From positions 3,100,001 to 3,164,000 of the forward strand of contig NZ_CP061721.1 of the NCBI RefSeq assembly GCF_014764445.1: a DNA stretch of 64,000 bases, written 5' to 3'. A program made the position numbers and the translations under genes. The stretch comes from Pseudarthrobacter sp. BIM B-2242. GTDB lineage: Bacteria; Actinomycetota; Actinomycetes; Actinomycetales; Micrococcaceae. Positions 11,117-45,790 of the stretch are shown here, piece after piece; positions within the stretch are counted from its first letter, which is position 1; every line of letters begins with the position of its first letter. Below the pieces are notes generated by a model. It saw only the letters and a program-made list of their open reading frames with translations, was not told the origin of the DNA and did no database searches.

Positions 11117-11371
11117 TCAGACGTCGCCGAGAATACGGCCCGCCAACCGTGCCTCGAACTTCAGGGCCTGCTCCTCGGTGATCTGGTTCAGCTCGACCGC
11201 CCGCTTCAGGTCCTCGCTGATGCCATTCATCCGGGCAGACGCGTCCGGTACGGGGCTGAAGATGATGGAGCCTGCCAGGGCTGCAGCGGCGACTGAGGTG
11301 GCAGCGGTGGCAACTGCCCCGGCGGCAGCGGCGGTGGTTCGGGTGACGTAACGGACGGCGTTGTTCTGCAT
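11117..11371 (-). CDS. Small hypothetical membrane-anchored or secreted protein
   Basis: This 84-residue protein has a short basic start, an Ala-rich hydrophobic segment (about residues 12-40) that looks like a signal peptide or anchor, and a charged C-terminal helix (EDLKRAVELNQITEEQALKFEARL). A GGGAAG ribosome-binding site precedes the ATG, and codon use is GC3-rich like its neighbours. I do not recognise the family. It stands alone between tRNA-Tyr and the yajQ-like gene. Confidence 0.6.
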   Translation of the reverse strand: MQNNAVRYVTRTTAAAAGAVATAATSVAAAALAGSIIFSPVPDASARMNGISEDLKRAVELNQITEEQALKFEARLAGRILGDV

Positions 11372-11570
11372 TGCTTCCCTTTCGTACTTCTTCCAACTGG
11401 TTCAACTCTTCCCCGTCCGGCTTCGTTCCCGCAGTGCGTCCGCTAGGAGGGAACTGTGAATCGCGCGCCGGCGCCGCGGTACCCTCACAGCCGATCCGTA
11501 TTAGGCTGGAATGCAGAGATCCACGCCCTGCAGAGGCATTTCAGGGCATCCATCAGCACAAAGGAGAGTC

Positions 11571-12062
11571 ATGGCAGGCGAGTCAACGTTCGATGTCGTA
11601 AGCAAAGTGGACAAGCAGGAAGTAGCCAACGCGCTGCACCAGGCGCAGAAGGAACTTGTCCAGCGCTACGACTTCAAGGGTGTAGGCGCCGAGGTCGATT
11701 TCAGCGGCGAGAAGATCCTGATGAAGGCCAACTCCGAGGAACGCGTCCTGGCTGTGCTGGACGTGCTCCAGTCCAAGCTGATCCGCCGGGGCATCTCGCT
11801 GAAGTCCCTGGACACCGGCGAGCCGTTCGCCTCCGGCAAGGAGTTCCGCCTGGAAGCCACCATCAAGGAAGGCATCGAGCAGGATCTGGCCAAGAAGATC
11901 AACAAGCTGATCCGCGACGAAGGGCCGAAGGGCGTCAAGTCACAGATCCAGGGCGACGAACTCCGTGTCTCGTCCAAGTCCCGCGATGACCTGCAGTCCG
12001 TGATGGCACTGCTGAAGGACTTTGACGAGGCCGACCTGCAGTTCGTCAACTTCCGCAGCTAG
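11571..12062 (+). CDS. YajQ family nucleotide-binding protein
   Basis: This 163-residue protein matches the YajQ/UPF0234 family along its length, from STFDVVSKVDKQEVANAL to FDEADLQFVNFRS. Members have two RNP-like ferredoxin folds; some bind cyclic di-GMP or nucleic acid and act as regulators. The ATG at 11571 follows AAAGGAGAG at good spacing. It is monocistronic, with a strong terminator 20 bases after the stop. Confidence 0.93.
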   Translation: MAGESTFDVVSKVDKQEVANALHQAQKELVQRYDFKGVGAEVDFSGEKILMKANSEERVLAVLDVLQSKLIRRGISLKSLDTGEPFASGKEFRLEATIKEGIEQDLAKKINKLIRDEGPKGVKSQIQGDELRVSSKSRDDLQSVMALLKDFDEADLQFVNFRS

Positions 12063-12082
12063 CACACAGCCAGGACACGGAA

Positions 12083-12125
12083 ACGGGCCGGGGACACCTG
12101 AACTTAGGTGTCCCCGGCCCGTTTG
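12083..12125 (+). terminator. Rho-independent terminator of the yajQ-like gene
   Basis: A 17-base stem (12083-12099 with 12106-12122, ACGGGCCGGGGACACCT) encloses a 6-base loop and runs into a short T-rich end. It separates the gene from the convergent htpX. Confidence 0.92.
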
Positions 12126-12190
12126 TGCGTCCTGAGCCCGGACCGGTGTCCTCAACGCGGACGACGGCGGCACCGGGTTACCGGGGAATG

Positions 12191-13057
12191 TCACCGCAGC
12201 GGCCGGCCCGCCATCCGCTCCAGCCGGGCAATGCGTTCCCGCATGGGCGGATGGGTGGCAAACAGTTTGGTCATGGCGCCGCCGCGGAAGGGGTTGGCGA
12301 TCATCAGGTGCGAGGTATTGACCAGCTTCTGGTCCTGCGGCAGCGGCGCAATCCGCACCCCTTGCTCGATCTTGTTCAGGGCTGAGGCGAGCGCCAGCGG
12401 ATCGCCCGTGAGCTGCGACCCATCCTCGTCGGCGTCGTACTCCCTGGTCCTTGAGATGGCGAGCTGGATCAGCGAGGCGGCAAAGGGCGCCAGCAGCGCC
12501 ATGGCAATCATGGCCAGCGGGTTCGAATTGCGCCTGTCGCCACCAAAGAACAGCAGCATCTGGCCCACCGAGGTAATCACCCCGGCCACAGCGGCTGCCA
12601 CCGAGGATGTCAGGATGTCCCGGTTGTAGACGTGCATCAGCTCGTGACCCAGGACGCCGCGGAGCTCCCGGGCATCGAGCAGTTGGAGGATCCCTTCGGT
12701 GCAGCAGACTGCCGCATTTTTGGGGTTCCGACCTGTTGCGAACGCGTTCGGATTCATGGTTGGCAAGAGGTAGATCCGCGGCATCGGCTGGTTGGCCCGG
12801 ACCGAGAGCTCCCGGACAATCTGGTAGAGCTGCGGCGCCTGCGCTTCCGTGACAGGGTAGGCAGCCATGGAGCGGATGGCGATCTTGTCGCTGTTCCAGT
12901 AGCCGTACGCCGTGGTGGCCACGCCCACCAGCGCCATGATCCAGATAGGAGCCGAGCTGCGGGTGTTGAGCCCGATCAGGCCGCCCAGCCCCAGCAGCAC
13001 GGCCCACAGCACACCGAACAGCGCCGCAGTTTTCAGTCCGTTGTAATGCCTGTGCAT
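12191..13057 (-). CDS. htpX: HtpX-like zinc metalloprotease
   Basis: This 288-residue membrane protease of family M48 has two N-terminal membrane helices, the zinc motif HELMH (His138, Glu139, His142), further hydrophobic helices and the third ligand region REYDADEDG. HtpX takes part in membrane protein quality control under stress, with the active site facing the cytoplasm. An AGGAG ribosome-binding site precedes the ATG. The gene is followed by a convergent terminator. Confidence 0.95.
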   Translation of the reverse strand: MHRHYNGLKTAALFGVLWAVLLGLGGLIGLNTRSSAPIWIMALVGVATTAYGYWNSDKIAIRSMAAYPVTEAQAPQLYQIVRELSVRANQPMPRIYLLPTMNPNAFATGRNPKNAAVCCTEGILQLLDARELRGVLGHELMHVYNRDILTSSVAAAVAGVITSVGQMLLFFGGDRRNSNPLAMIAMALLAPFAASLIQLAISRTREYDADEDGSQLTGDPLALASALNKIEQGVRIAPLPQDQKLVNTSHLMIANPFRGGAMTKLFATHPPMRERIARLERMAGRPLR

Positions 13058-13105
13058 GTCCGCTCCTCCATGTCACCCCGGCGGGGCCGTCCCAACGGGC
13101 AAGGC

Positions 13106-37897: not shown

Positions 37898-39586
37898 TCA
37901 GCCGCCCAGCTCGCGCTTTATCGCCTCGTACGCGGGCGTCGGCTTGCCGTCCTCGAACAGGAAGTCGTGGCCCTGCTGCAGCCCGCCGTCGTCGTCGATC
38001 CACCAGTCGTAGCGGCCGTCCACGCCCCACGTTGTGTAGGAGACGCAGGTGCGCGAGCCCAGGCAGGTGGCCAGCACCGTGGCGTACTGCTTCGCCTGAA
38101 CGTCCCTCCCCTCGTCGTCGGAGACGTCGTTCTCCGAGATACGGGCATGCAGCCCCGCCGCCCCGATGCTGTCGAGGGTTTGGCTGAGGTCCTCGGCGGA
38201 GATGGAGTCGGTCTCAAGGTCGTAGACGTGGGCCTGGAGGCCCACGCCATAGATGTGCCCGCCCAACGCGTTAGTGTCGACGGCGAGCTTCAGCAGGGCA
38301 TCCTGCCGTGGCCCCGGGACGTCGGCCCCGTTCTCGTTGATGAACTGCTTGACGTCCGGGTCCGCGTCGAAGACGGCACGGGAGACAACCGCCGGGTAGG
38401 AGGGCCCGAAGACGCGGTACCAGATGTTCTCTTGGAGGCTGGTTCCCTGATAGATGTCGAGCGGTTCGTTGACGACATCAAGGGAGTCAAGCCTTCCCTT
38501 GAAGTGCGTCACCACGGTTTTGACGAAGTCCAGCAGGGCCTCAGCGCTGGCACGGCGTTCCTGCTCGGAGCCGCTGGGGAGCTCCTGCATCCAGCGCGGC
38601 ATCGCCTCCGTGAAGGCGATCGTGTGACCGTGTACCGCGATGCCCTTGCTTTCGGCGATCGCGAGGATCGCATCGGCTTCTTCAAACGTGTAGACGCCCT
38701 GCTGCGGCGAAAGGAACTGCGGCTTCATCGCGTTCTCCGGCGTGAGGGCGCCGAAGTTGCCGACGAGCTCCCGCGCGTAGTCCGCGTCTGATGCCAGCGG
38801 ACCGAGGGCCACTGCCGCACCGATTTTGAAATCCGGCCGGATCCTTGCAGCCAGTGCCTGCAGTCCGTCCGCTGCCTGTTCGGCCGCAGCCACCGCGGGG
38901 CCGGCCGTGGTCAGCGAGGTGCCCTTCGGGGCGGTGGCGGTGAGTGATCTGACCTGGAACGAACCGTCGTCGCTCGACAGGCCCAGCCAGAGCTTCCCTG
39001 AGTCGAATACGCCGCCCAGGGGCAGCGACAGCACGGTGTCCCCGCCGCTGTCGACCTCGAGTGTTTTACCGGACCGCCGCACCGAGAGCTCCGCCTCCGG
39101 ATCGGCGACCTTTACGTGTTCCTCATGCGCGGGCCGGGGGTTGGTCACGTCTTTTTGGACCGAGCCGTCAAAGACCGCAATCCCCAGATCGTCGCTGCGG
39201 AGGGTCAGCCGCAGTCCGGCCGGCTCGATCCTGAACTCGTCGGCGATCACCGGCGGGCTGTCGTAGACGGTCCAGGTCGCGTCGGCTGTCACATCGGTGA
39301 AGGAAACACTGAGGGAGAAGTCCCCCCCGGCTACCAGGTGCGTGCCTGCCAGGTTCAGCGGCGGGTTTGGCTGGCCTCCCCCGCCGTTCTGCTCAACGAT
39401 GCTCCGTGTTGTGGCGGCGACCTGCAGCGTGCCGCCGCCGGCCGCCACGCCCGGCGTGTGCTGCCAGTCCTGCTGGAGCAGGTCAACGATCACGTCGGGC
39501 TCCGGGTTCGGATCGCCGGTACAGCCTGCGATGGTGAGAAGGAGGCAGGACGCCAACACCATGAGCACGCGCGGGCGCTTGGCCAT
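37898..39586 (-). CDS. GH10-family glycoside hydrolase lipoprotein
   Basis: This 562-residue lipoprotein (lipobox TIAGC) has a beta-rich N-terminal region of about 220 residues and a C-terminal GH10 (endo-xylanase type) barrel. GH10 landmarks are ALTPENAMKPQ, the acid/base Glu374 in DVVNEPLD, and the nucleophile Glu485 in ISENDV, which departs from the usual ITELD. A strong AAAGGAGG ribosome-binding site precedes the start. It is the last gene of the polysaccharide operon, so it may trim or release the polymer made by the neighbouring GT2 enzyme rather than digest plant xylan. Confidence 0.85.
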   Translation of the reverse strand: MAKRPRVLMVLASCLLLTIAGCTGDPNPEPDVIVDLLQQDWQHTPGVAAGGGTLQVAATTRSIVEQNGGGGQPNPPLNLAGTHLVAGGDFSLSVSFTDVTADATWTVYDSPPVIADEFRIEPAGLRLTLRSDDLGIAVFDGSVQKDVTNPRPAHEEHVKVADPEAELSVRRSGKTLEVDSGGDTVLSLPLGGVFDSGKLWLGLSSDDGSFQVRSLTATAPKGTSLTTAGPAVAAAEQAADGLQALAARIRPDFKIGAAVALGPLASDADYARELVGNFGALTPENAMKPQFLSPQQGVYTFEEADAILAIAESKGIAVHGHTIAFTEAMPRWMQELPSGSEQERRASAEALLDFVKTVVTHFKGRLDSLDVVNEPLDIYQGTSLQENIWYRVFGPSYPAVVSRAVFDADPDVKQFINENGADVPGPRQDALLKLAVDTNALGGHIYGVGLQAHVYDLETDSISAEDLSQTLDSIGAAGLHARISENDVSDDEGRDVQAKQYATVLATCLGSRTCVSYTTWGVDGRYDWWIDDDGGLQQGHDFLFEDGKPTPAYEAIKRELGG

Positions 39587-39627
39587 CCTGCCTCCTTTTT
39601 CTCCCATCCTGCATTCTCGTCCTCGAC

Positions 39628-41424
39628 TTAGGACCTGGTCCAGCGGACGTCGTCCACATAGGCCAGCACGCCCGAATTGCCGGTCACATACACCTGCAGA
39701 CTGGCCCTCGCGACGTTGGTGGTGCTCGGTGAATAGGTCAGGTCGACGTTGCTGGCGCCCACCGTGGTGCTCGCGAGCTTCCACTGCCCGGAGATCCAGT
39801 TGCCGTTGGCATCGTACTCGTCGATGTACCAGCCCAGCTCACCGGCGGTGCGGTTCCTGATGCTGAGGTAGGCGGCGATCTTGTAGCTGCCCGGGGTGAC
39901 GTTCACCTGCGGTGAGAACAGGTGGATGTTGGCCGCGGTGGACTGCATCTTCACGGAGTTCACCGGGTTTGCCGGCGCGCCGTTGTTGGCGCCGTCGGCC
40001 ACGATGGCCGTCCCGGCGTCGCTCCTCCAGCCGCCGCTGATGCCGGCGTCGAAGGTGCCGTTGGCCACGAGGTTCGAGGCCGGCGGCTGCTGGGTCTCCG
40101 CGCTCAGCGCCATCATCTGCACGTTGTCGAGGTAGGCGGTGATTCCTGTGCCGGCCACAATGACCTGCAGGCTTGCGGTGGCCACGTTGGTCGAACTCGG
40201 CGTATAGGTGAAGTTGAGCGCTTCCACCCACCGCGTGTTCTCCCGCTTGCGGTACTGGCCCGAGATCCAGGTCCCGGCGGCGTTGTACTCGTCGACGTAG
40301 AAGGCCACCTCGCCGCTGGTAATGGCTGCGACGTTGAGGAACGTCTTGTACAGGTAGTTGGTCCCCGGGGTGACCGGGACCCGCGGCGAAAACAGGTGGC
40401 CCTGCCCTGTGCCGGAGACGAGCTTCACTGACCTCGCGGAGTCCGGGAAGCTGCCGTTGTTGCCAGTATCGGCAGTGATGGTCGCCGGGGCGTCGGTCCG
40501 CCAGCCGTCCCCGAGTCCGTTGTTGAACGTGGGGTTCGGCATCTTGTTCGGCGAACCCGTCACGAGGCCCTTGCTGACGTTGACGTTCTTGATCTGGCCG
40601 GCCGCCACCTTGGTCTTCACATACGCAGCCAGCTCGTCGAGCTCGGCGGTGCCGTACTGGTAGTCGTCCGGGTTCCGGCTGGGATTCGGCCGGATGTCGT
40701 GGAAGGTGAACACCACCCAGTTCTTGTTCGCAATCGCCTCGTCAACCTTCGCCTTCAGCGTGGCCACCGGCGTGGTCACCTCCTGGACCGGGACGTTGCG
40801 TAGCAGGTAGTCGCCGAGCGGCCAGATGTTGTTGCCCGTGTCGGCGAAGCCGCGCATCGAGCTGTAGTACTTGGCCACCTGGGCAATCACCGGCATGTCA
40901 TAGTCGCCGTACGGCGGGGCGAACGCCGTCGCGTTGATGCCGCGCGCTGCGAGGGCGGACTTGCTGTTTGCCAGTTCGGCGTTGACCTGGGCGGCCGTCA
41001 GCTTGGTGGCCTGGCAGTCGTCGCCGACGCTCACAAGGCACTGGTGGGAGACGGTGTGTGAGCCGATTTCCCACCCGTAGGTGTTCTGCAGCTGCACGAT
41101 CTGGTCCCACGTCATGTAAGGCACATCCGTGTCAGCCCGGCAGGTATTGGGCACGGTGGTCATGCCGACGCAGTTGGTGGTGACGTAGTTCGTGCCCGTT
41201 AGCCCGTGCTTCTGGAGCGTCGGCGCGGCCTGCGTCAGTGAACTGAGGGCCCCGTCATCGAAGGTGAAGGACACCAGCGGTCCGGGCGCCGGGTTGTCCA
41301 CGGCTGCGTTCGCCACCCCTGGCGTCAGCAGCGCGGCGGCCATGGCTGCCACAGCCACCCCAATGGTCACGAGCCTGGCGTGCCCCCGCGCCAAGCTGGA
41401 TCTGGTTATGGTCATGAGTTCCAT
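39628..41424 (-). CDS. Secreted polysaccharide deacetylase with two C-terminal CBM-like modules
   Basis: This protein of about 598 residues has a signal peptide, an N-terminal NodB/CE4 deacetylase domain (VSFTFDDG metal site; EIGSHTVSHQ with the His pair), and two beta-sandwich modules of about 130 residues that resemble each other (PNPTFNNGLGDGWRTD and ANGTFDAGISGGWRSD starts), like CBM4/9 modules. It would remove N- or O-acetyl groups from a polysaccharide outside the cell. The ATG at 41424 follows AAAGGAA; a GTG at 41478 overlapping the previous stop is the alternative start. It sits in the polysaccharide operon. Confidence 0.88.
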   Translation of the reverse strand: MELMTITRSSLARGHARLVTIGVAVAAMAAALLTPGVANAAVDNPAPGPLVSFTFDDGALSSLTQAAPTLQKHGLTGTNYVTTNCVGMTTVPNTCRADTDVPYMTWDQIVQLQNTYGWEIGSHTVSHQCLVSVGDDCQATKLTAAQVNAELANSKSALAARGINATAFAPPYGDYDMPVIAQVAKYYSSMRGFADTGNNIWPLGDYLLRNVPVQEVTTPVATLKAKVDEAIANKNWVVFTFHDIRPNPSRNPDDYQYGTAELDELAAYVKTKVAAGQIKNVNVSKGLVTGSPNKMPNPTFNNGLGDGWRTDAPATITADTGNNGSFPDSARSVKLVSGTGQGHLFSPRVPVTPGTNYLYKTFLNVAAITSGEVAFYVDEYNAAGTWISGQYRKRENTRWVEALNFTYTPSSTNVATASLQVIVAGTGITAYLDNVQMMALSAETQQPPASNLVANGTFDAGISGGWRSDAGTAIVADGANNGAPANPVNSVKMQSTAANIHLFSPQVNVTPGSYKIAAYLSIRNRTAGELGWYIDEYDANGNWISGQWKLASTTVGASNVDLTYSPSTTNVARASLQVYVTGNSGVLAYVDDVRWTRS

Positions 41425-41474
41425 CCGTTCCTTTTGTGTGGCTGACGGCACCGGGTTACGCCGCCGATTGGTGG

Positions 41475-43280
41475 TCACGGGCCCTGCAATTGCTGATAGG
41501 CCTGAGCGACCGTCTGCACCTCGATACCGCTTTGGTGGATGAGCGTCAGTTGGGCTGCGAGGGCGTCACTGGTGATGGTGCTCCGGTCCGCCGCGATGGT
41601 GCCGTTTTGCTGGGTGCCGGTCGAGTCGGGGGCCGCGATCTGGTGGTAAACGAGGATGAGCCAGCCGTTCATCCGGGATGTCTCGGCGAGCGCCTCGGCC
41701 AGGATCTCCGGGGTGGTCTCGTCGGTCACGTAGAAGACTTTCAGATCGTGCGGCTCCAGGTTCTGCCGGGTGTTGATGCCATCCTCTGTCCCGCGAACAA
41801 TGTCGAAGTACTTGCTCGCGTACCAGTCAACCTGGGGGTCGGACCGTCCGTAGGGGGGTGCCAGGTTATTGGTGCCGAGGCCGGCGGCGGCAAGGGCTTC
41901 GTCGCTCTGCCGCATCTCATCGTGCAGCCGGTCGGCACTGATTGAGGTGAGATCGACGTGGTTGTAGCTGTGGGAGCCGAATTCATGCCCTGCCTCGGTC
42001 ATCTGCTGCACCTGGGCGGCCGTCATAAAGTTCTGCGTCTCGATGGAACTGGGATTGACGTACTGGGTGGACGGGAAGTTGTGCCCGTCCAGCAACGGCA
42101 GGGCACGGTCGTAGACAGACTGCCAGCCGTCGTCGAACGAGATCGACACCATGGGCTTGGACCAGCGGAGAGGACCTGGCTTGGTGATATCCGTGAGTGA
42201 ATAGTCACGGACTCCGGTGGTGCCGTCACCGTGCGAAACCAGGGTGACCATCACCGACTTTGCCCCGACCGGCACCTGGAACGGTTCCCTGATGGTTGTC
42301 CACTCCCCTGCCGGCGGGACGGTCTCCAGGTTAAGGAACGAGCGCCCGCCGTTCACGAGCTCAAACTCGGCCACGACGTCCACCTCCCGCTCGGACCTGT
42401 ATGTCGCGCCGAACTCGAGATAGCGGTCGACGGCGACCGGGACCGGCGGGTACTGCCACTTGGCCTCGCCGTTCCGATAGTTCGCGATCCGGGTCCAGAG
42501 GAAGCTTCCGTCCTCGTCCTCGGTGCGCCCGGACGCCACGTTCAATGCCCCGGAGGTATACGGGGACCATGAGTAGGGTACGCCCGGCTGCGGGGCGGCG
42601 AGCCCGGAGTTGGGGATGAGGTTGGTACCCACGGCCGAAGCGGTCCGCAGCCGGACGTCCTCCGCAGCTTCGAGGTAAGCGCCCTCGACAGTGATAACGC
42701 CCGTTGTCGCGAGCCGGAAGACGTACTCCACCGCGGTGGTCGTTTCTCCGCTGTCGAACGCGTCGCTCACCGTGAAGGCGGCATTACCCGGCCGTTCGAG
42801 GGGATTCCGCAGCTGCTCCAGGGAGGTGCTGCCATCGGCGTAGTGCTTGCGGGCGAGCAGCGTGAAGTCCGTGTCGCTGGTGGTGAATGCTTTGAAAAGG
42901 TAGGTCTTCCCGGGCTGCACATCCACCCGCGGGCTCGTCAGTGTGATGTCGCCCGAGGCGTAGCGGGTGATATCGAGCTTCAGCGCGTCGTCGTTCATCT
43001 GTCCGTTGACCAGCTCCAGCGAGGTCTGGGCGTCCCCATTGTTGTTCACCTTCCATCCCCCTACAAGGCCCGCGGGCGCCGACGGCGCGGAGGCCATCGA
43101 GGCGCCGGCCGTGGTCGGATCGAGCGGGGGGAGCAAATTCGCGCCGGCCCGCGCTCGGGCCATGCTGTTGGTCCCACCGGTGTACAGGAGCCATCCTGAC
43201 GTGGCAAGGATGACCACTACGGTAATGGCTACGAACGGGTTCAGCAGGAAACGGCGAAGGCGGTGTCGTTTATGCTGCAC
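41475..43280 (-). CDS. Membrane-anchored polysaccharide deacetylase with CBM-like modules
   Basis: This 601-residue protein has a cytoplasmic basic start (MQHKRHRLRRF), one membrane helix (about 14-32), two beta-rich modules (about 50-190 and 215-365) and a C-terminal CE4 deacetylase domain with SISFDDGWQSVYD and HEFGSHSYNHVDLT metal sites. The domain order is the reverse of the next deacetylase, although both share module types. The start overlaps the GT2 gene by 11 bases. It probably modifies the nascent polymer at the outer membrane face, comparable in role to IcaB/PgaB deacetylases. Confidence 0.88.
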   Translation of the reverse strand: MQHKRHRLRRFLLNPFVAITVVVILATSGWLLYTGGTNSMARARAGANLLPPLDPTTAGASMASAPSAPAGLVGGWKVNNNGDAQTSLELVNGQMNDDALKLDITRYASGDITLTSPRVDVQPGKTYLFKAFTTSDTDFTLLARKHYADGSTSLEQLRNPLERPGNAAFTVSDAFDSGETTTAVEYVFRLATTGVITVEGAYLEAAEDVRLRTASAVGTNLIPNSGLAAPQPGVPYSWSPYTSGALNVASGRTEDEDGSFLWTRIANYRNGEAKWQYPPVPVAVDRYLEFGATYRSEREVDVVAEFELVNGGRSFLNLETVPPAGEWTTIREPFQVPVGAKSVMVTLVSHGDGTTGVRDYSLTDITKPGPLRWSKPMVSISFDDGWQSVYDRALPLLDGHNFPSTQYVNPSSIETQNFMTAAQVQQMTEAGHEFGSHSYNHVDLTSISADRLHDEMRQSDEALAAAGLGTNNLAPPYGRSDPQVDWYASKYFDIVRGTEDGINTRQNLEPHDLKVFYVTDETTPEILAEALAETSRMNGWLILVYHQIAAPDSTGTQQNGTIAADRSTITSDALAAQLTLIHQSGIEVQTVAQAYQQLQGP

Positions 43281-44613
43281 GGGCTACCACCAGGCTGCCT
43301 GCGCGCTGTGGCGACTTCCATGTGGTGTGCTCGGAACGCTTGAAGAGACCCTTGGAGCGTGCGATACAGCGGAACGCTGCCGACAACTGCACCAGGTCCA
43401 TAACGTAAAACAGGAAGTAGGCGGTCGGGGCGTACACGGACAGGCGGGCGCGTTCGCTCACCGACAGGTTCTCATCCATCCAGATAGTCAGCAAAGTGTA
43501 TGCGGTGATGGTGGCGTACGCTCCGAGGACCAGGGCGGGCGTCTGTGTGACCACCGACCAGTAGGCAGCATAGGTCCAGGCAAGCGGCGAGACGAGCAGC
43601 GTGAACTCGCTGAGCACGGCCATCGGCATCCGATAGTAGGTCAGCGTGCCGGTGTACCGGCGACTCGGGTTCATCACCATTCCGCGATACTTGATCAGGT
43701 TCTGCAGGCTTCCGAACTTCCACCGATAGCGCTGCTTTGCCAAGGCTCGGAAGGTGAGGACGCCCTCGGTCTTGGCGACCACGTCAGCGCCGTAGATCAT
43801 GCGGAACCGGCGGTTGCCCAGACTGGTGATTTTTGTGCTCAGGCCGATGTCCTCCGTCAGGGTGTCCGTATCGTAGAAGCCCACCTTGCGCAGCACGCGC
43901 ATCCGATAGGTAGAGGCCACTCCACCCACCACAAATTCGCAATTAAGCAGCGAGTAGAGCTTTTTCGAGCGGTATCCGATCATGTGCTCGAACCGCTGCA
44001 GGATGCCCAGGCCCGTCGTCTCTTCTAAGATCTGCACGTTGGCAGCGACGCCAGCCACATGCGGATCGTCAAAGTAGGTCAGCGCGTTGGCAATGGCGGT
44101 CGGCTCGAGGATGGAGTCGGCGTCCATCGTCATGACGAATTGGCCGCGTGCGTGCCTGCGAAGCGCCTCGTTGAGCGCGGCGCCTTTCCCAACGTTCTTG
44201 TGCATTCGCACGATGCGCAGATCCATATCGGGGTGCCGCACCTGGTAGTCGCGGACCAGCCGGCCCGTCAGGTCGGTGGAGGCGTCGTCCGCAACGAGGA
44301 CCTCAAAAGAACGGTATGTGCTGCGCCGGAGGGAGTCGAGGGTCCGAACGATTACGGTCTCCTCATTGTGTGCTGCGATGGCAACAGAGACCAGCCCGGG
44401 CACCTCGGGGCGGGCACGGCGGGTCCATGTCGCCGTCGCCGCGCACTCCGCCTGGTACTCGGCCGGTAGCCGGACCCCGCTCATCCCTTTCCGGCGCTGC
44501 TGCCAGATGTCATAGAAGTTGGCACCCACCAGGTACAGGCCGAAGTGTACGACGTAAAGGATGCTGACACCGGCGAACAGCCAGAAGACCACCAGCGGGA
44601 TATCCATACTCAT
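43270..44613 (-). CDS. Processive GT2 glycosyltransferase (polysaccharide synthase)
   Basis: This 447-residue membrane enzyme has one N-terminal membrane helix, a cytoplasmic GT-A domain and three or more C-terminal helices. All processive GT2 motifs are visible: VADDAS, MDADS (DxD), TEDIGLS and QRYRW (QxxRW). It is like N-acetylglucosamine or hyaluronan/chitin synthases, which polymerise and extrude a beta-linked glycan. Overlaps of 4 and 11 bases with its neighbours place it in one operon with two deacetylases, pointing to a poly-N-acetylglucosamine-like product. The exact sugar is inference. Confidence 0.9.
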   Translation of the reverse strand: MSMDIPLVVFWLFAGVSILYVVHFGLYLVGANFYDIWQQRRKGMSGVRLPAEYQAECAATATWTRRARPEVPGLVSVAIAAHNEETVIVRTLDSLRRSTYRSFEVLVADDASTDLTGRLVRDYQVRHPDMDLRIVRMHKNVGKGAALNEALRRHARGQFVMTMDADSILEPTAIANALTYFDDPHVAGVAANVQILEETTGLGILQRFEHMIGYRSKKLYSLLNCEFVVGGVASTYRMRVLRKVGFYDTDTLTEDIGLSTKITSLGNRRFRMIYGADVVAKTEGVLTFRALAKQRYRWKFGSLQNLIKYRGMVMNPSRRYTGTLTYYRMPMAVLSEFTLLVSPLAWTYAAYWSVVTQTPALVLGAYATITAYTLLTIWMDENLSVSERARLSVYAPTAYFLFYVMDLVQLSAAFRCIARSKGLFKRSEHTTWKSPQRAGSLVVARAA

Positions 44614-45140
44614 CCCTCAGTAGAGTTGGCGGCGAGCGCAGGCACGTGCGTGGCGGTCCGGCGCTCGCTGCGCCAGTGGCGAAGCGAGCGCCGGGACACC
44701 TGCACGGACGTGGCGGCGACAGCCGGTGCCTCGTCCGGCTGCCGGAGCTGGTCGAACGTGGCGGGCGTGACGACGTCAGTCCTTAGCGTGTGGACGGCAT
44801 CCTTTCCGGCGATGGTGGCGTGCACTGTCTCCTTCAAGGCCATGGCGGCCGGAACCGTGTCCTTGGTAGCCGCGTTGACCGTAGTGAGTGTGTTTAGCGT
44901 GTTGACTGGCACGACGGTCGGCACGACAGCGGCAATCGGGGTCAAGGCCACGACGCGTGCCTTGCGGTCGGCACCGCGCCGATACATCCAAATGCCGACG
45001 AAGCGCACCACCACGGTGAGGATCACGAGCGCCCATAAAGCGACGCTGAGCTGAGCTACAAAATCGACCAGGCCTTCGAAGAGCGCACTGTCCCGACCGA
45101 AGGTCGCCTGGGCAGGCACAGAGCTCATGATGTGCGTCAT
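44610..45140 (-). CDS. Small membrane protein, first gene of the polysaccharide operon
   Basis: This 176-residue protein has a clear membrane helix near the N-terminus (LSVALWALVILTVVVRFVGIW) and a possible second weak one, then a Thr/Val-rich region and a basic C-terminal tail (RRSLRHWRSERR). I recognise no family. Position and size recall IcaD or PgaD, the small partners of GT2 polymer synthases. The ATG follows GAGAGGGG; its stop overlaps the GT2 start by 4 bases. Confidence 0.6.
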   Translation of the reverse strand: MTHIMSSVPAQATFGRDSALFEGLVDFVAQLSVALWALVILTVVVRFVGIWMYRRGADRKARVVALTPIAAVVPTVVPVNTLNTLTTVNAATKDTVPAAMALKETVHATIAGKDAVHTLRTDVVTPATFDQLRQPDEAPAVAATSVQVSRRSLRHWRSERRTATHVPALAANSTEG

Positions 45141-45790
45141 CGGAGGCCCCTCTCTTCTGCATAGGTGTTGTCAGTTGTGGCGCGCCCGTGACCGGGCCGG
45201 CATGGTTTGTCCACGAAGGTTGGCGCCGGAGCAGATGTGCCACCGGTCCAGTCCACGGCTCCCGTAAGTAGTCGAGTCATTGCATTTCCCCTGTCTCGTG
45301 CAAGATGTTGTCATTGGCCGTGGGGCGAGACGTCCAGTCCCAGGGCTAAGCCGTGTCTGCGTCCATGCATCTTGCGCAGGACCTCCGCAAGCGAGGGCAC
45401 CATTGCCGCGTTGCGAAAAAATTATGGGCGGGGTGGCGTCTCCGCTTCCGACAGCGGGCACCGGAACATGACCTAAAGCAATCTCGTCTACCGCCCTTGG
45501 CATTGCCGTAAAGCAGTCGACAGCTTCGAGGAATGTCATCACGAATCTCCGCATAGTTAAGCCTTCCAGGAGCCGCTGCATAGCTCACCGATGTGTCCAA
45601 ACTACGAGTCGTCCCTAAGGCCATACACGAGTAGCCGGTACTCTAATAGTTTCTTTGGGGTACTTACTCAAAGAGCCTCGCGGCTGCAGTTCATTAGGGA
45701 GTTACCCGCTGGAAGAGCGGGTGCATTAGGTATCCGTGCCCCTTTCGGCGCAAAGTCGTTAGGTAGTTCCCCTAGCTGGAATGTCCGGAC
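45141..45790. promoter_or_regulatory. Gene-free region upstream of the polysaccharide operon
   Basis: These 650 bases hold no gene I can support: open stretches in all frames lack the GC-rich third positions of the neighbours. The base composition is visibly lower in GC. On the minus strand GCAAGATG (complement of 45368-45375) pairs with CATCTTGC (complement of 45300-45307) around 60 bases, suggesting a folded leader RNA, and a T6 run lies at the complement of 45416-45421. I could not match a known riboswitch consensus. Confidence 0.4.

What the first reader, a model, noticed from the sequence alone, without database searches (positions are those of the whole stretch)
37898..45140. Five-gene operon for an extracellular deacetylated polysaccharide, with a GH10-family enzyme
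The genes overlap or nearly touch in one direction: a small membrane protein, a processive GT2 synthase, two CE4 deacetylases with CBM-like modules in opposite domain order, and a GH10 lipoprotein. The layout recalls ica/pga poly-N-acetylglucosamine systems (synthase, small partner, deacetylase), but with two deacetylases and a GH10 hydrolase in place of the usual hydrolase. A GH10 catalytic site with ISENDV instead of ITELD suggests a substrate other than xylan. I know of no described system with exactly this set.
Basis: partly seen in the sequence, partly recalled or inferred. Interest (0 to 1): 0.72.

Follow-up and report, generated by a model that had tools for sequence, protein, structure and literature searches.

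The report
Actinobacterial matrix-sugar operon with GH10 cutter
A compact set of five genes, carried by only some soil actinobacteria, probably builds, trims and cuts a sticky surface sugar polymer, and the cutting enzyme alone also turns up in bacteria in which the building genes were not found.

Summary
Five minus-strand genes (37898-45140): a small membrane protein, a GT2 synthase, two CE4 deacetylases with accessory modules in opposite order, and a GH10 lipoprotein (true start 39586, 562 aa). The order is kept in 28 of 28 related loci examined, except that one lacks CE4a, one lacks CE4b and one GH10 is cut by a contig end. Hosts include Arthrobacter, Cryobacterium, Arachnia, Geodermatophilus and Blastococcus. 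In the window's genus it sits between gabT and rarD; 10 of 10 non-carriers examined lack it there. The GT2 is a clade of its own, far under the PgaC/IcaA cut-off (144 of 422 bits); whether PgaC or fused CE4-GT2 (MatB-like) proteins are its nearest kin is unresolved. Best reading: a synthase-dependent, partly de-N-acetylated matrix polysaccharide with GH10 as its hydrolase. GH10 keeps both catalytic glutamates but replaces xylanase W-H-x-Q by F-[TSG]-E-[AS]. New beyond the finding: 11 genomes carry this GH10 with no synthase found, and these orphans nest among operon copies (p-AU 0.006 against one operon clade). Glycan chemistry and GH10 substrate are unproven. New variant of a known kind.

The parts
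44610..45140 (-). Small membrane protein (176 aa): conserved first ~55 residues with a strong hydrophobic helix (27-45); a weaker hydrophobic stretch (61-79) lies in the variable Ala/Thr/Arg-rich rest; possible synthase partner
   Evidence: no Pfam; no similarity to E. coli PgaD
43270..44613 (-). GT2 synthase (447 aa), DxD, TED and QxxRW motifs kept; hydrophobic segments 5-23, 361-379, 400-418
41475..43280 (-). CE4a deacetylase (601 aa): N-terminal membrane anchor, two beta-sandwich modules, C-terminal CE4 domain
39628..41415 (-). CE4b deacetylase (595 aa from the conserved ATG; listed ORF begins at 41478): N-terminal hydrophobic signal, CE4 domain, then a CBM_4_9-like module and what reads as a second, repeat-like one
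   Evidence: (CBM_4_9 24.6 bits, just under the 25.9 cut-off); second module by eye from the sequence
37898..39586 (-). GH10 lipoprotein (562 aa; listed ORF begins at 39784): lipobox, N-terminal beta domain without Pfam match, GH10 barrel about 239-562; E374 and E485 catalytic by family
45137..45280 (-). Possible leader ORF (47 aa) whose stop overlaps the ATG of the small protein; of variable length in relatives, fused in frame with it in L040/L045
   Evidence: reading of upstream DNA by eye

Best explanation
The operon makes a secreted, partly de-N-acetylated, beta-linked amino-sugar polymer that serves as an adhesive surface or biofilm matrix. The GT2, perhaps assisted by the small membrane protein, polymerises an N-acetylhexosamine from the cytoplasm and passes the chain through the membrane (inferred from family). 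On the outer face the membrane-anchored CE4a and the secreted CE4b, both with carbohydrate-binding-like modules, remove acetyl groups (families and metal-ligand residues shown; substrate inferred). The GH10 lipoprotein, held at the surface, cuts the deacetylated stretches, as the hydrolase half of PgaB does for PNAG (PgaB part recalled), to trim, release or recycle the polymer (inferred). Retained GH10 subsite residues favour a beta-1,4 link; the loss of Gln at the xylanase W-H-x-Q motif would leave room for a C6 hydroxymethyl group (inferred). The operon is an on/off trait: it lies in different surroundings in different families, which suggests movement as a block, and is present or absent at one fixed site in the window's genus. 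GH10 also occurs without the operon in genomes where no synthase was found, and could there be used on others' matrix (inferred).
For: Families and architecture. Synteny in 28 of 28 loci with the stated exceptions. Purifying selection. GT2 motifs DAD, TED, QRYRW. Fused CE4-GT2 proteins exist among its relatives, and one such protein, MatB, with MatA makes PNAG in Streptomyces (PMC5972031, passages read). CE4b D53/D54, H120, H124, H239 invariant in 14 of 14 rows. GH10 E284, N285, K288, H321, N373, E374, Q451, H453, E485, D487, W520, W528 in 39 of 39, with F325 and E327 also invariant and A328 in 90% or more. Fixed site: 19 of 28 carrier loci show both gabT and rarD around the operon; 10 of 10 non-carriers examined (of 88) have those two with no operon gene between, 5 of 10 with only 84-180 bp. 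Orphan GH10.
Against: No chemistry. GH10 action on an amino-sugar polymer is without precedent that I know of. MatAB's product is reported as beta-1,6-linked, which would not suit a beta-1,4 hydrolase. CE4 proteins can also act on peptidoglycan or O-acetyl groups. The Blastococcus CE4a (L055) has Asp for the second His of the HxxxH motif, so CE4a activity may not be needed everywhere. GH10 occurs where no synthase was found, so its target could be an unrelated glycan. The two orphan GH10 pairs tried evolve faster (dN/dS 0.33-0.34 against 0.08-0.14 in two operon pairs).
Confidence: 0.57

Rival explanations
1. It is a rearranged PNAG (ica/pga/mat-like) operon making ordinary beta-1,6-GlcNAc polymer, and the GH10 is a dispersal enzyme of new linkage specificity or a side passenger.
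For: Best NCBIfam model for the GT2 is PgaC_IcaA; a joint clade of the system GT2 with PgaC is not rejected when their close partners are kept with them (p-AU 0.18, 0.42, 0.25); fused CE4-GT2 relatives include the MatB type, which with MatA makes PNAG; public names include 'biofilm PGA synthesis N-glycosyltransferase PgaC'.
Against: 144 of 422 bits; in the free trees the system GT2 lies outside PgaC; small protein unlike PgaD; no IcaC- or PgaA-like gene among the five; GH10 is known for beta-1,4 links (recalled).
Confidence: 0.28
2. The GH10 and CE4 proteins are plant-polymer enzymes (xylanase and acetyl-xylan esterases) and the GT2 makes an unrelated surface glycan; the set is an operon for attachment to, and feeding on, plant matter.
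For: The commonest source name in the list is endo-1,4-beta-xylanase; CBM4-like module; main catalytic and subsite residues of xylanases kept; one orphan GH10 lies near genes resembling a sugar transporter and a LacI-type regulator (L123, my reading, not scanned).
Against: GH10 sits with the synthase in all 28 carrier loci (cut by contig end in L051); xylanase W-H-x-Q replaced; no sugar transporter among the five genes; the CE4 proteins match HfsH, a polysaccharide-biosynthesis deacetylase, best, though far under its cut-off.
Confidence: 0.1
3. The set remodels a cell-wall or capsule glycan rather than making a free matrix polymer; the CE4 proteins deacetylate peptidoglycan or wall glycan.
For: CE4 structural neighbours include peptidoglycan deacetylases; CE4a and GH10 are predicted to be membrane-held.
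Against: A processive-type GT2 is the core; patchy presence (12 of 101 same-genus genomes) does not suit an essential wall function.
Confidence: 0.05

Closest known systems
Streptomyces MatAB (PNAG, fused CE4-GT2)
   Same: Actinobacterial; GT2 plus CE4; a gene before the synthase that may assist it; fused CE4-GT2 proteins are next to the system clade in the free tree (joint support 87/81, not firm).
   Different: GT2 and CE4 are separate proteins here; usually two CE4 proteins; a GH10 is added.
icaADBC / pgaABCD poly-N-acetylglucosamine operons
   Same: Synthase, small membrane protein, deacetylase; a hydrolase in the PgaB sense (recalled).
   Different: GT2 far under the PgaC/IcaA cut-off and outside PgaC in the free trees, though a joint clade is not excluded; no PgaD-like protein; no IcaC or PgaA among the five; GH10 in place of the PgaB hydrolase.
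HfsH holdfast deacetylase (Caulobacter)
   Same: Best NCBIfam match of both CE4 proteins (63.6 and 59.4 bits).
   Different: Far under its cut-off of 400 bits.
GH10 xylanases/Cex
   Different: W-H-x-Q to F-[TSG]-E-[AS], an extra N-terminal beta domain, and the operon context.
NodC/NodB
   Same: GT2 plus CE4 logic on GlcNAc chains (recalled).
   Different: NodC lies apart on a long branch, with GED and QQxRW in place of TED and QRxRW.

Membership tests
ica/pga PNAG synthesis system | Synthase passes the PgaC/IcaA equivalog cut-off | tested here: not met
   TIGR03937: 144 bits, cut-off 422
ica/pga PNAG synthesis system | Synthase in one clade with PgaC | tested here: inconclusive
   Free trees place it outside. 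One test rejected a joint clade (p-AU 0.0019), but it split both groups from close partners; three fairer tests did not (p-AU 0.18, 0.42, 0.25)
ica/pga PNAG synthesis system | PgaD/IcaD-type partner | tested here: not met
   hhalign against E. coli PgaD, probability 0.3%; IcaD was not compared
ica/pga PNAG synthesis system | IcaB/PgaB-type deacetylase | tested here: not met
ica/pga PNAG synthesis system | Product is beta-1,6-GlcNAc | not testable with these tools
   needs chemistry
MatB-type fused CE4-GT2 | CE4 and GT2 in one chain | tested here: not met
   separate genes in the window and in the loci; fusion seen in relative L018
GH10 glycoside hydrolase family | GH10 fold and profile | tested here: met
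GH10 glycoside hydrolase family | Acid/base and nucleophile glutamates | tested here: met
   E374 and E485 invariant in 39 of 39
Xylanase (activity) | Cuts xylan | not testable with these tools
   only the sequence change at W-H-x-Q is known
CE4 deacetylase family | Pfam profile and Asp-His-His metal site | tested here: met
   CE4b 14 of 14 rows; CE4a 17 of 18 rows, L055 has Asp for the second His

The most novel reading that the evidence does not exclude
The operon makes a bacterial chitosan-like beta-1,4-glucosaminan, and its GH10 is a deacetylation-gated glucosaminidase, an activity not known for GH10 to my knowledge. That enzyme has left the operon and is kept by non-producing actinobacteria as a tool to attack or eat the matrix of producers.
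Probability: 0.25. Interest if true: 0.75.

Novelty: new variant of a known kind. Interest (0 to 1): 0.52.

Why it matters
It would add a matrix-polysaccharide system for soil actinobacteria whose own hydrolase sits in a family otherwise named as xylanases; the 120 relatives listed (70-98% identical; 436 proteins passed the threshold, the rest not shown) are, where a source names them, mostly called endo-1,4-beta-xylanase and may be misnamed. Natural carriers, empty sites and orphan hydrolases give ready material to test what the polymer does and whether non-producers exploit it.

Tried and rejected
GH10 'missing' in ten loci was an artefact of my overlap filter and the over-long GH10 start; corrected. 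The first GT2 tree used wrongly cut rows (a bug in my script); replaced and not used; one search shares that bad input. My first claim that a joint clade with PgaC is rejected (p-AU 0.0019) did not survive a check: that test also tore the system from its Lacticaseibacillus sister and PgaC from the L. brevis row; with these kept together the p-AU values are 0.18 and 0.42 (the latter with the Listeria row added), and 0.25 without the longest rows. I lowered the main reading from 0.60 to 0.57 and raised the PNAG rival from 0.25 to 0.28 for this. The gene caller missed the GH10 of L091; found by tblastn. No Rfam family at gathering score in the window other than a tRNA; one sub-threshold match overlaps the terminator-like hairpin after gabT. 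No sigma-70-like promoter found, which says little in this phylum. The GH10 N-terminal domain has no Pfam match at E <= 1; its fold was not tested alone, as the barrel fills the structure lists. GT2 relatives on plasmids: 365 records, all under 60% identity. Papers: one search gave one listing (PMC5855634, not opened); some gave none; some gave listings, of which PMC5972031 and PMC6408826 were seen in passages; the Q88 in PMC6408826 belongs to another comparison and was not used. The Cex Q87/W84 equivalence rests on recall plus the alignment to two other GH10 xylanases.
Full report
WHAT IS THERE. On the minus strand, 37898-45140, five genes follow each other: a small membrane protein, a GT2, CE4a, CE4b and GH10. 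The GH10 frame as listed begins too early; the start shared with relatives is ATG 39586, giving a 562-residue lipoprotein with lipobox TIAGC. CE4b probably begins at 41415. Upstream, on the same strand, lie genes that I read as gabT and gabD (names by my reading); downstream, convergent, rarD and then a topoisomerase IB gene. A 47-residue leader frame ends in the ATG of the small protein; by eye its length varies among relatives and in L040/L045 it is fused in frame.

CONSERVATION. A scan of genome contigs with the GT2 gave 22 loci. One (L057, A. liuii; L065 is the same region) keeps the small protein's conserved part and an intact GH10, but has only a GT2 fragment overlapping the tail of CE4b, and no CE4a. 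The other 21, and 7 further same-genus loci (L058-L064), make 28; some are near-duplicates (L042 and L060 have identical GH10). All 28 have the small protein, GT2 and GH10 in the same order (L051 GH10 cut by the contig end). CE4a is missing in L053 (Arachnia) and CE4b in L054 (Geodermatophilus). GT2 identity to the window is 72-88%. Pairwise dN/dS from a few chosen pairs is 0.04-0.13 for GT2, 0.11-0.17 for CE4a, 0.06-0.07 for CE4b, 0.08-0.14 for operon GH10 and 0.05 for the first 60 codons of the small protein. Protein lists add names such as Kocuria (GT2 and GH10) and Kineosporia, Microbacterium, Labedella and Klenkia (GH10) (120 shown of 436 and of 891).

DISTRIBUTION. GT2 orthologues above 800 bits occur in 12 of 101 same-genus genomes, the window's included, plus one remnant; above 900 bits in 2 of 394 class genomes and 2 of 396 order genomes (the same two). 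Of the 28 carrier loci, 19 show gabT and rarD around the operon, one gabT only, and eight neither, two of these on short contigs. In 10 of 10 non-carriers that I picked from the 88, gabT and rarD are there with no operon gene between: 84-180 bp apart in five, 1.3-5.7 kb in five. So in this genus it is a presence/absence trait at one place; elsewhere it lies in other surroundings. Whether the genus gained or lost it repeatedly was not resolved.

THE SYNTHASE. DAD, TED and QRYRW are kept. The tree (33 rows, 295 columns) puts the twelve system GT2s in one clade (100/99), with a Lacticaseibacillus plasmid GT2 as a long-branched sister and then a clade of fused CE4-GT2 proteins (joint support 87/81, not firm). 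PgaC of E. coli and A. baumannii lie elsewhere in the free trees. A first test rejected a joint clade with these two (p-AU 0.0019), but it also broke up well-supported pairs; with the close partners kept in, a joint clade is not rejected (p-AU 0.18; 0.42 with the Listeria row; 0.25 without the three longest rows). So the system GT2 is a distinct clade on a long stem, whose sister group is unresolved. Only two PgaC and no IcaA, hyaluronan or cellulose synthase were in the tree. MatB of Streptomyces is a fused GT2-CE4 protein, and MatAB makes PNAG according to PMC5972031 (passages); that the fused rows here are MatB orthologues was not tested.

ORPHANS. GH10 orthologues above 900 bits: 11 of 396 order genomes and 4 of 394 class genomes. 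The same two carriers are in both; 9 + 2 = 11 others, of six family codes, have no GT2 match. For G177 and G214 this was confirmed with all candidates scored; for the nine order genomes it rests on a search that scores at most four candidates each plus the absence of any GT2, CE4 or small-protein match (E <= 1e-4) in the stretch fetched around GH10, up to 10 kb each side and less at contig ends. Neighbours share little: eight groups of similar genes, none in more than three of eleven loci, with a rough gene caller of my own. In the tree (44 rows) orphans nest among operon copies, with Geodermatophilus and Blastococcus operon copies basal under midpoint/outgroup rooting; one operon-only clade is rejected (p-AU 0.006), a test named after the tree was seen. 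The orphans themselves form one group only weakly (71/21). All 11 keep both glutamates and ISENDV; L092 has lost the lipobox Cys. Loss of the synthase after the operon arrived, as in A. liuii, and transfer of GH10 alone are both possible.

READING. Shown: a conserved operon with a GT2 carrying processive-synthase motifs, two CE4 proteins and a GH10 lipoprotein, different surroundings in different families, a fixed site in one genus, and GH10 copies without a detected synthase. Inferred: the polymer, its linkage, the order of action, lateral movement and the role of the orphans. Deacetylase followed by a hydrolase for deacetylated chain would parallel PgaB (recalled). GH10 has a plain Glu nucleophile (family knowledge), so it should prefer GlcN over GlcNAc at the cut; this is why deacetylation may gate it.

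NOVELTY. No paper describing the set was found in searches of the open library; most subscription papers are not held. It is a new variant of synthase-dependent matrix operons, not a new kind.

Noticed in passing
window 45137-45280 (-): Leader ORF coupled to the small-protein start; a 45-bp block around its ribosome site is 91% and 98% identical in L040 and L045.
   Followed up: partly
L057 / L065 (A. liuii): Natural remnant: GT2 fragment overlapping the CE4b tail, no CE4a, with GH10 intact and constrained (dN/dS about 0.1).
   Followed up: partly
L055 CE4a (11343-13058): Second His of the CE4 HxxxH motif is Asp in this Blastococcus copy, so one deacetylase may be inactive.
   Followed up: no
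P0091 and P0103: A Microbacterium strain name (W4I20) appears with two different system-type GH10 proteins.
   Followed up: no
L093-L095, L132: Full-length, 34-36% identical GH10 cousins with SEMD/SEAD at the nucleophile; substrate unknown.
   Followed up: partly
L109 (L. brevis plasmid): A GT2 next to a polysaccharide deacetylase gene on a mobilizable plasmid, grouping with PgaC in the trees.
   Followed up: no
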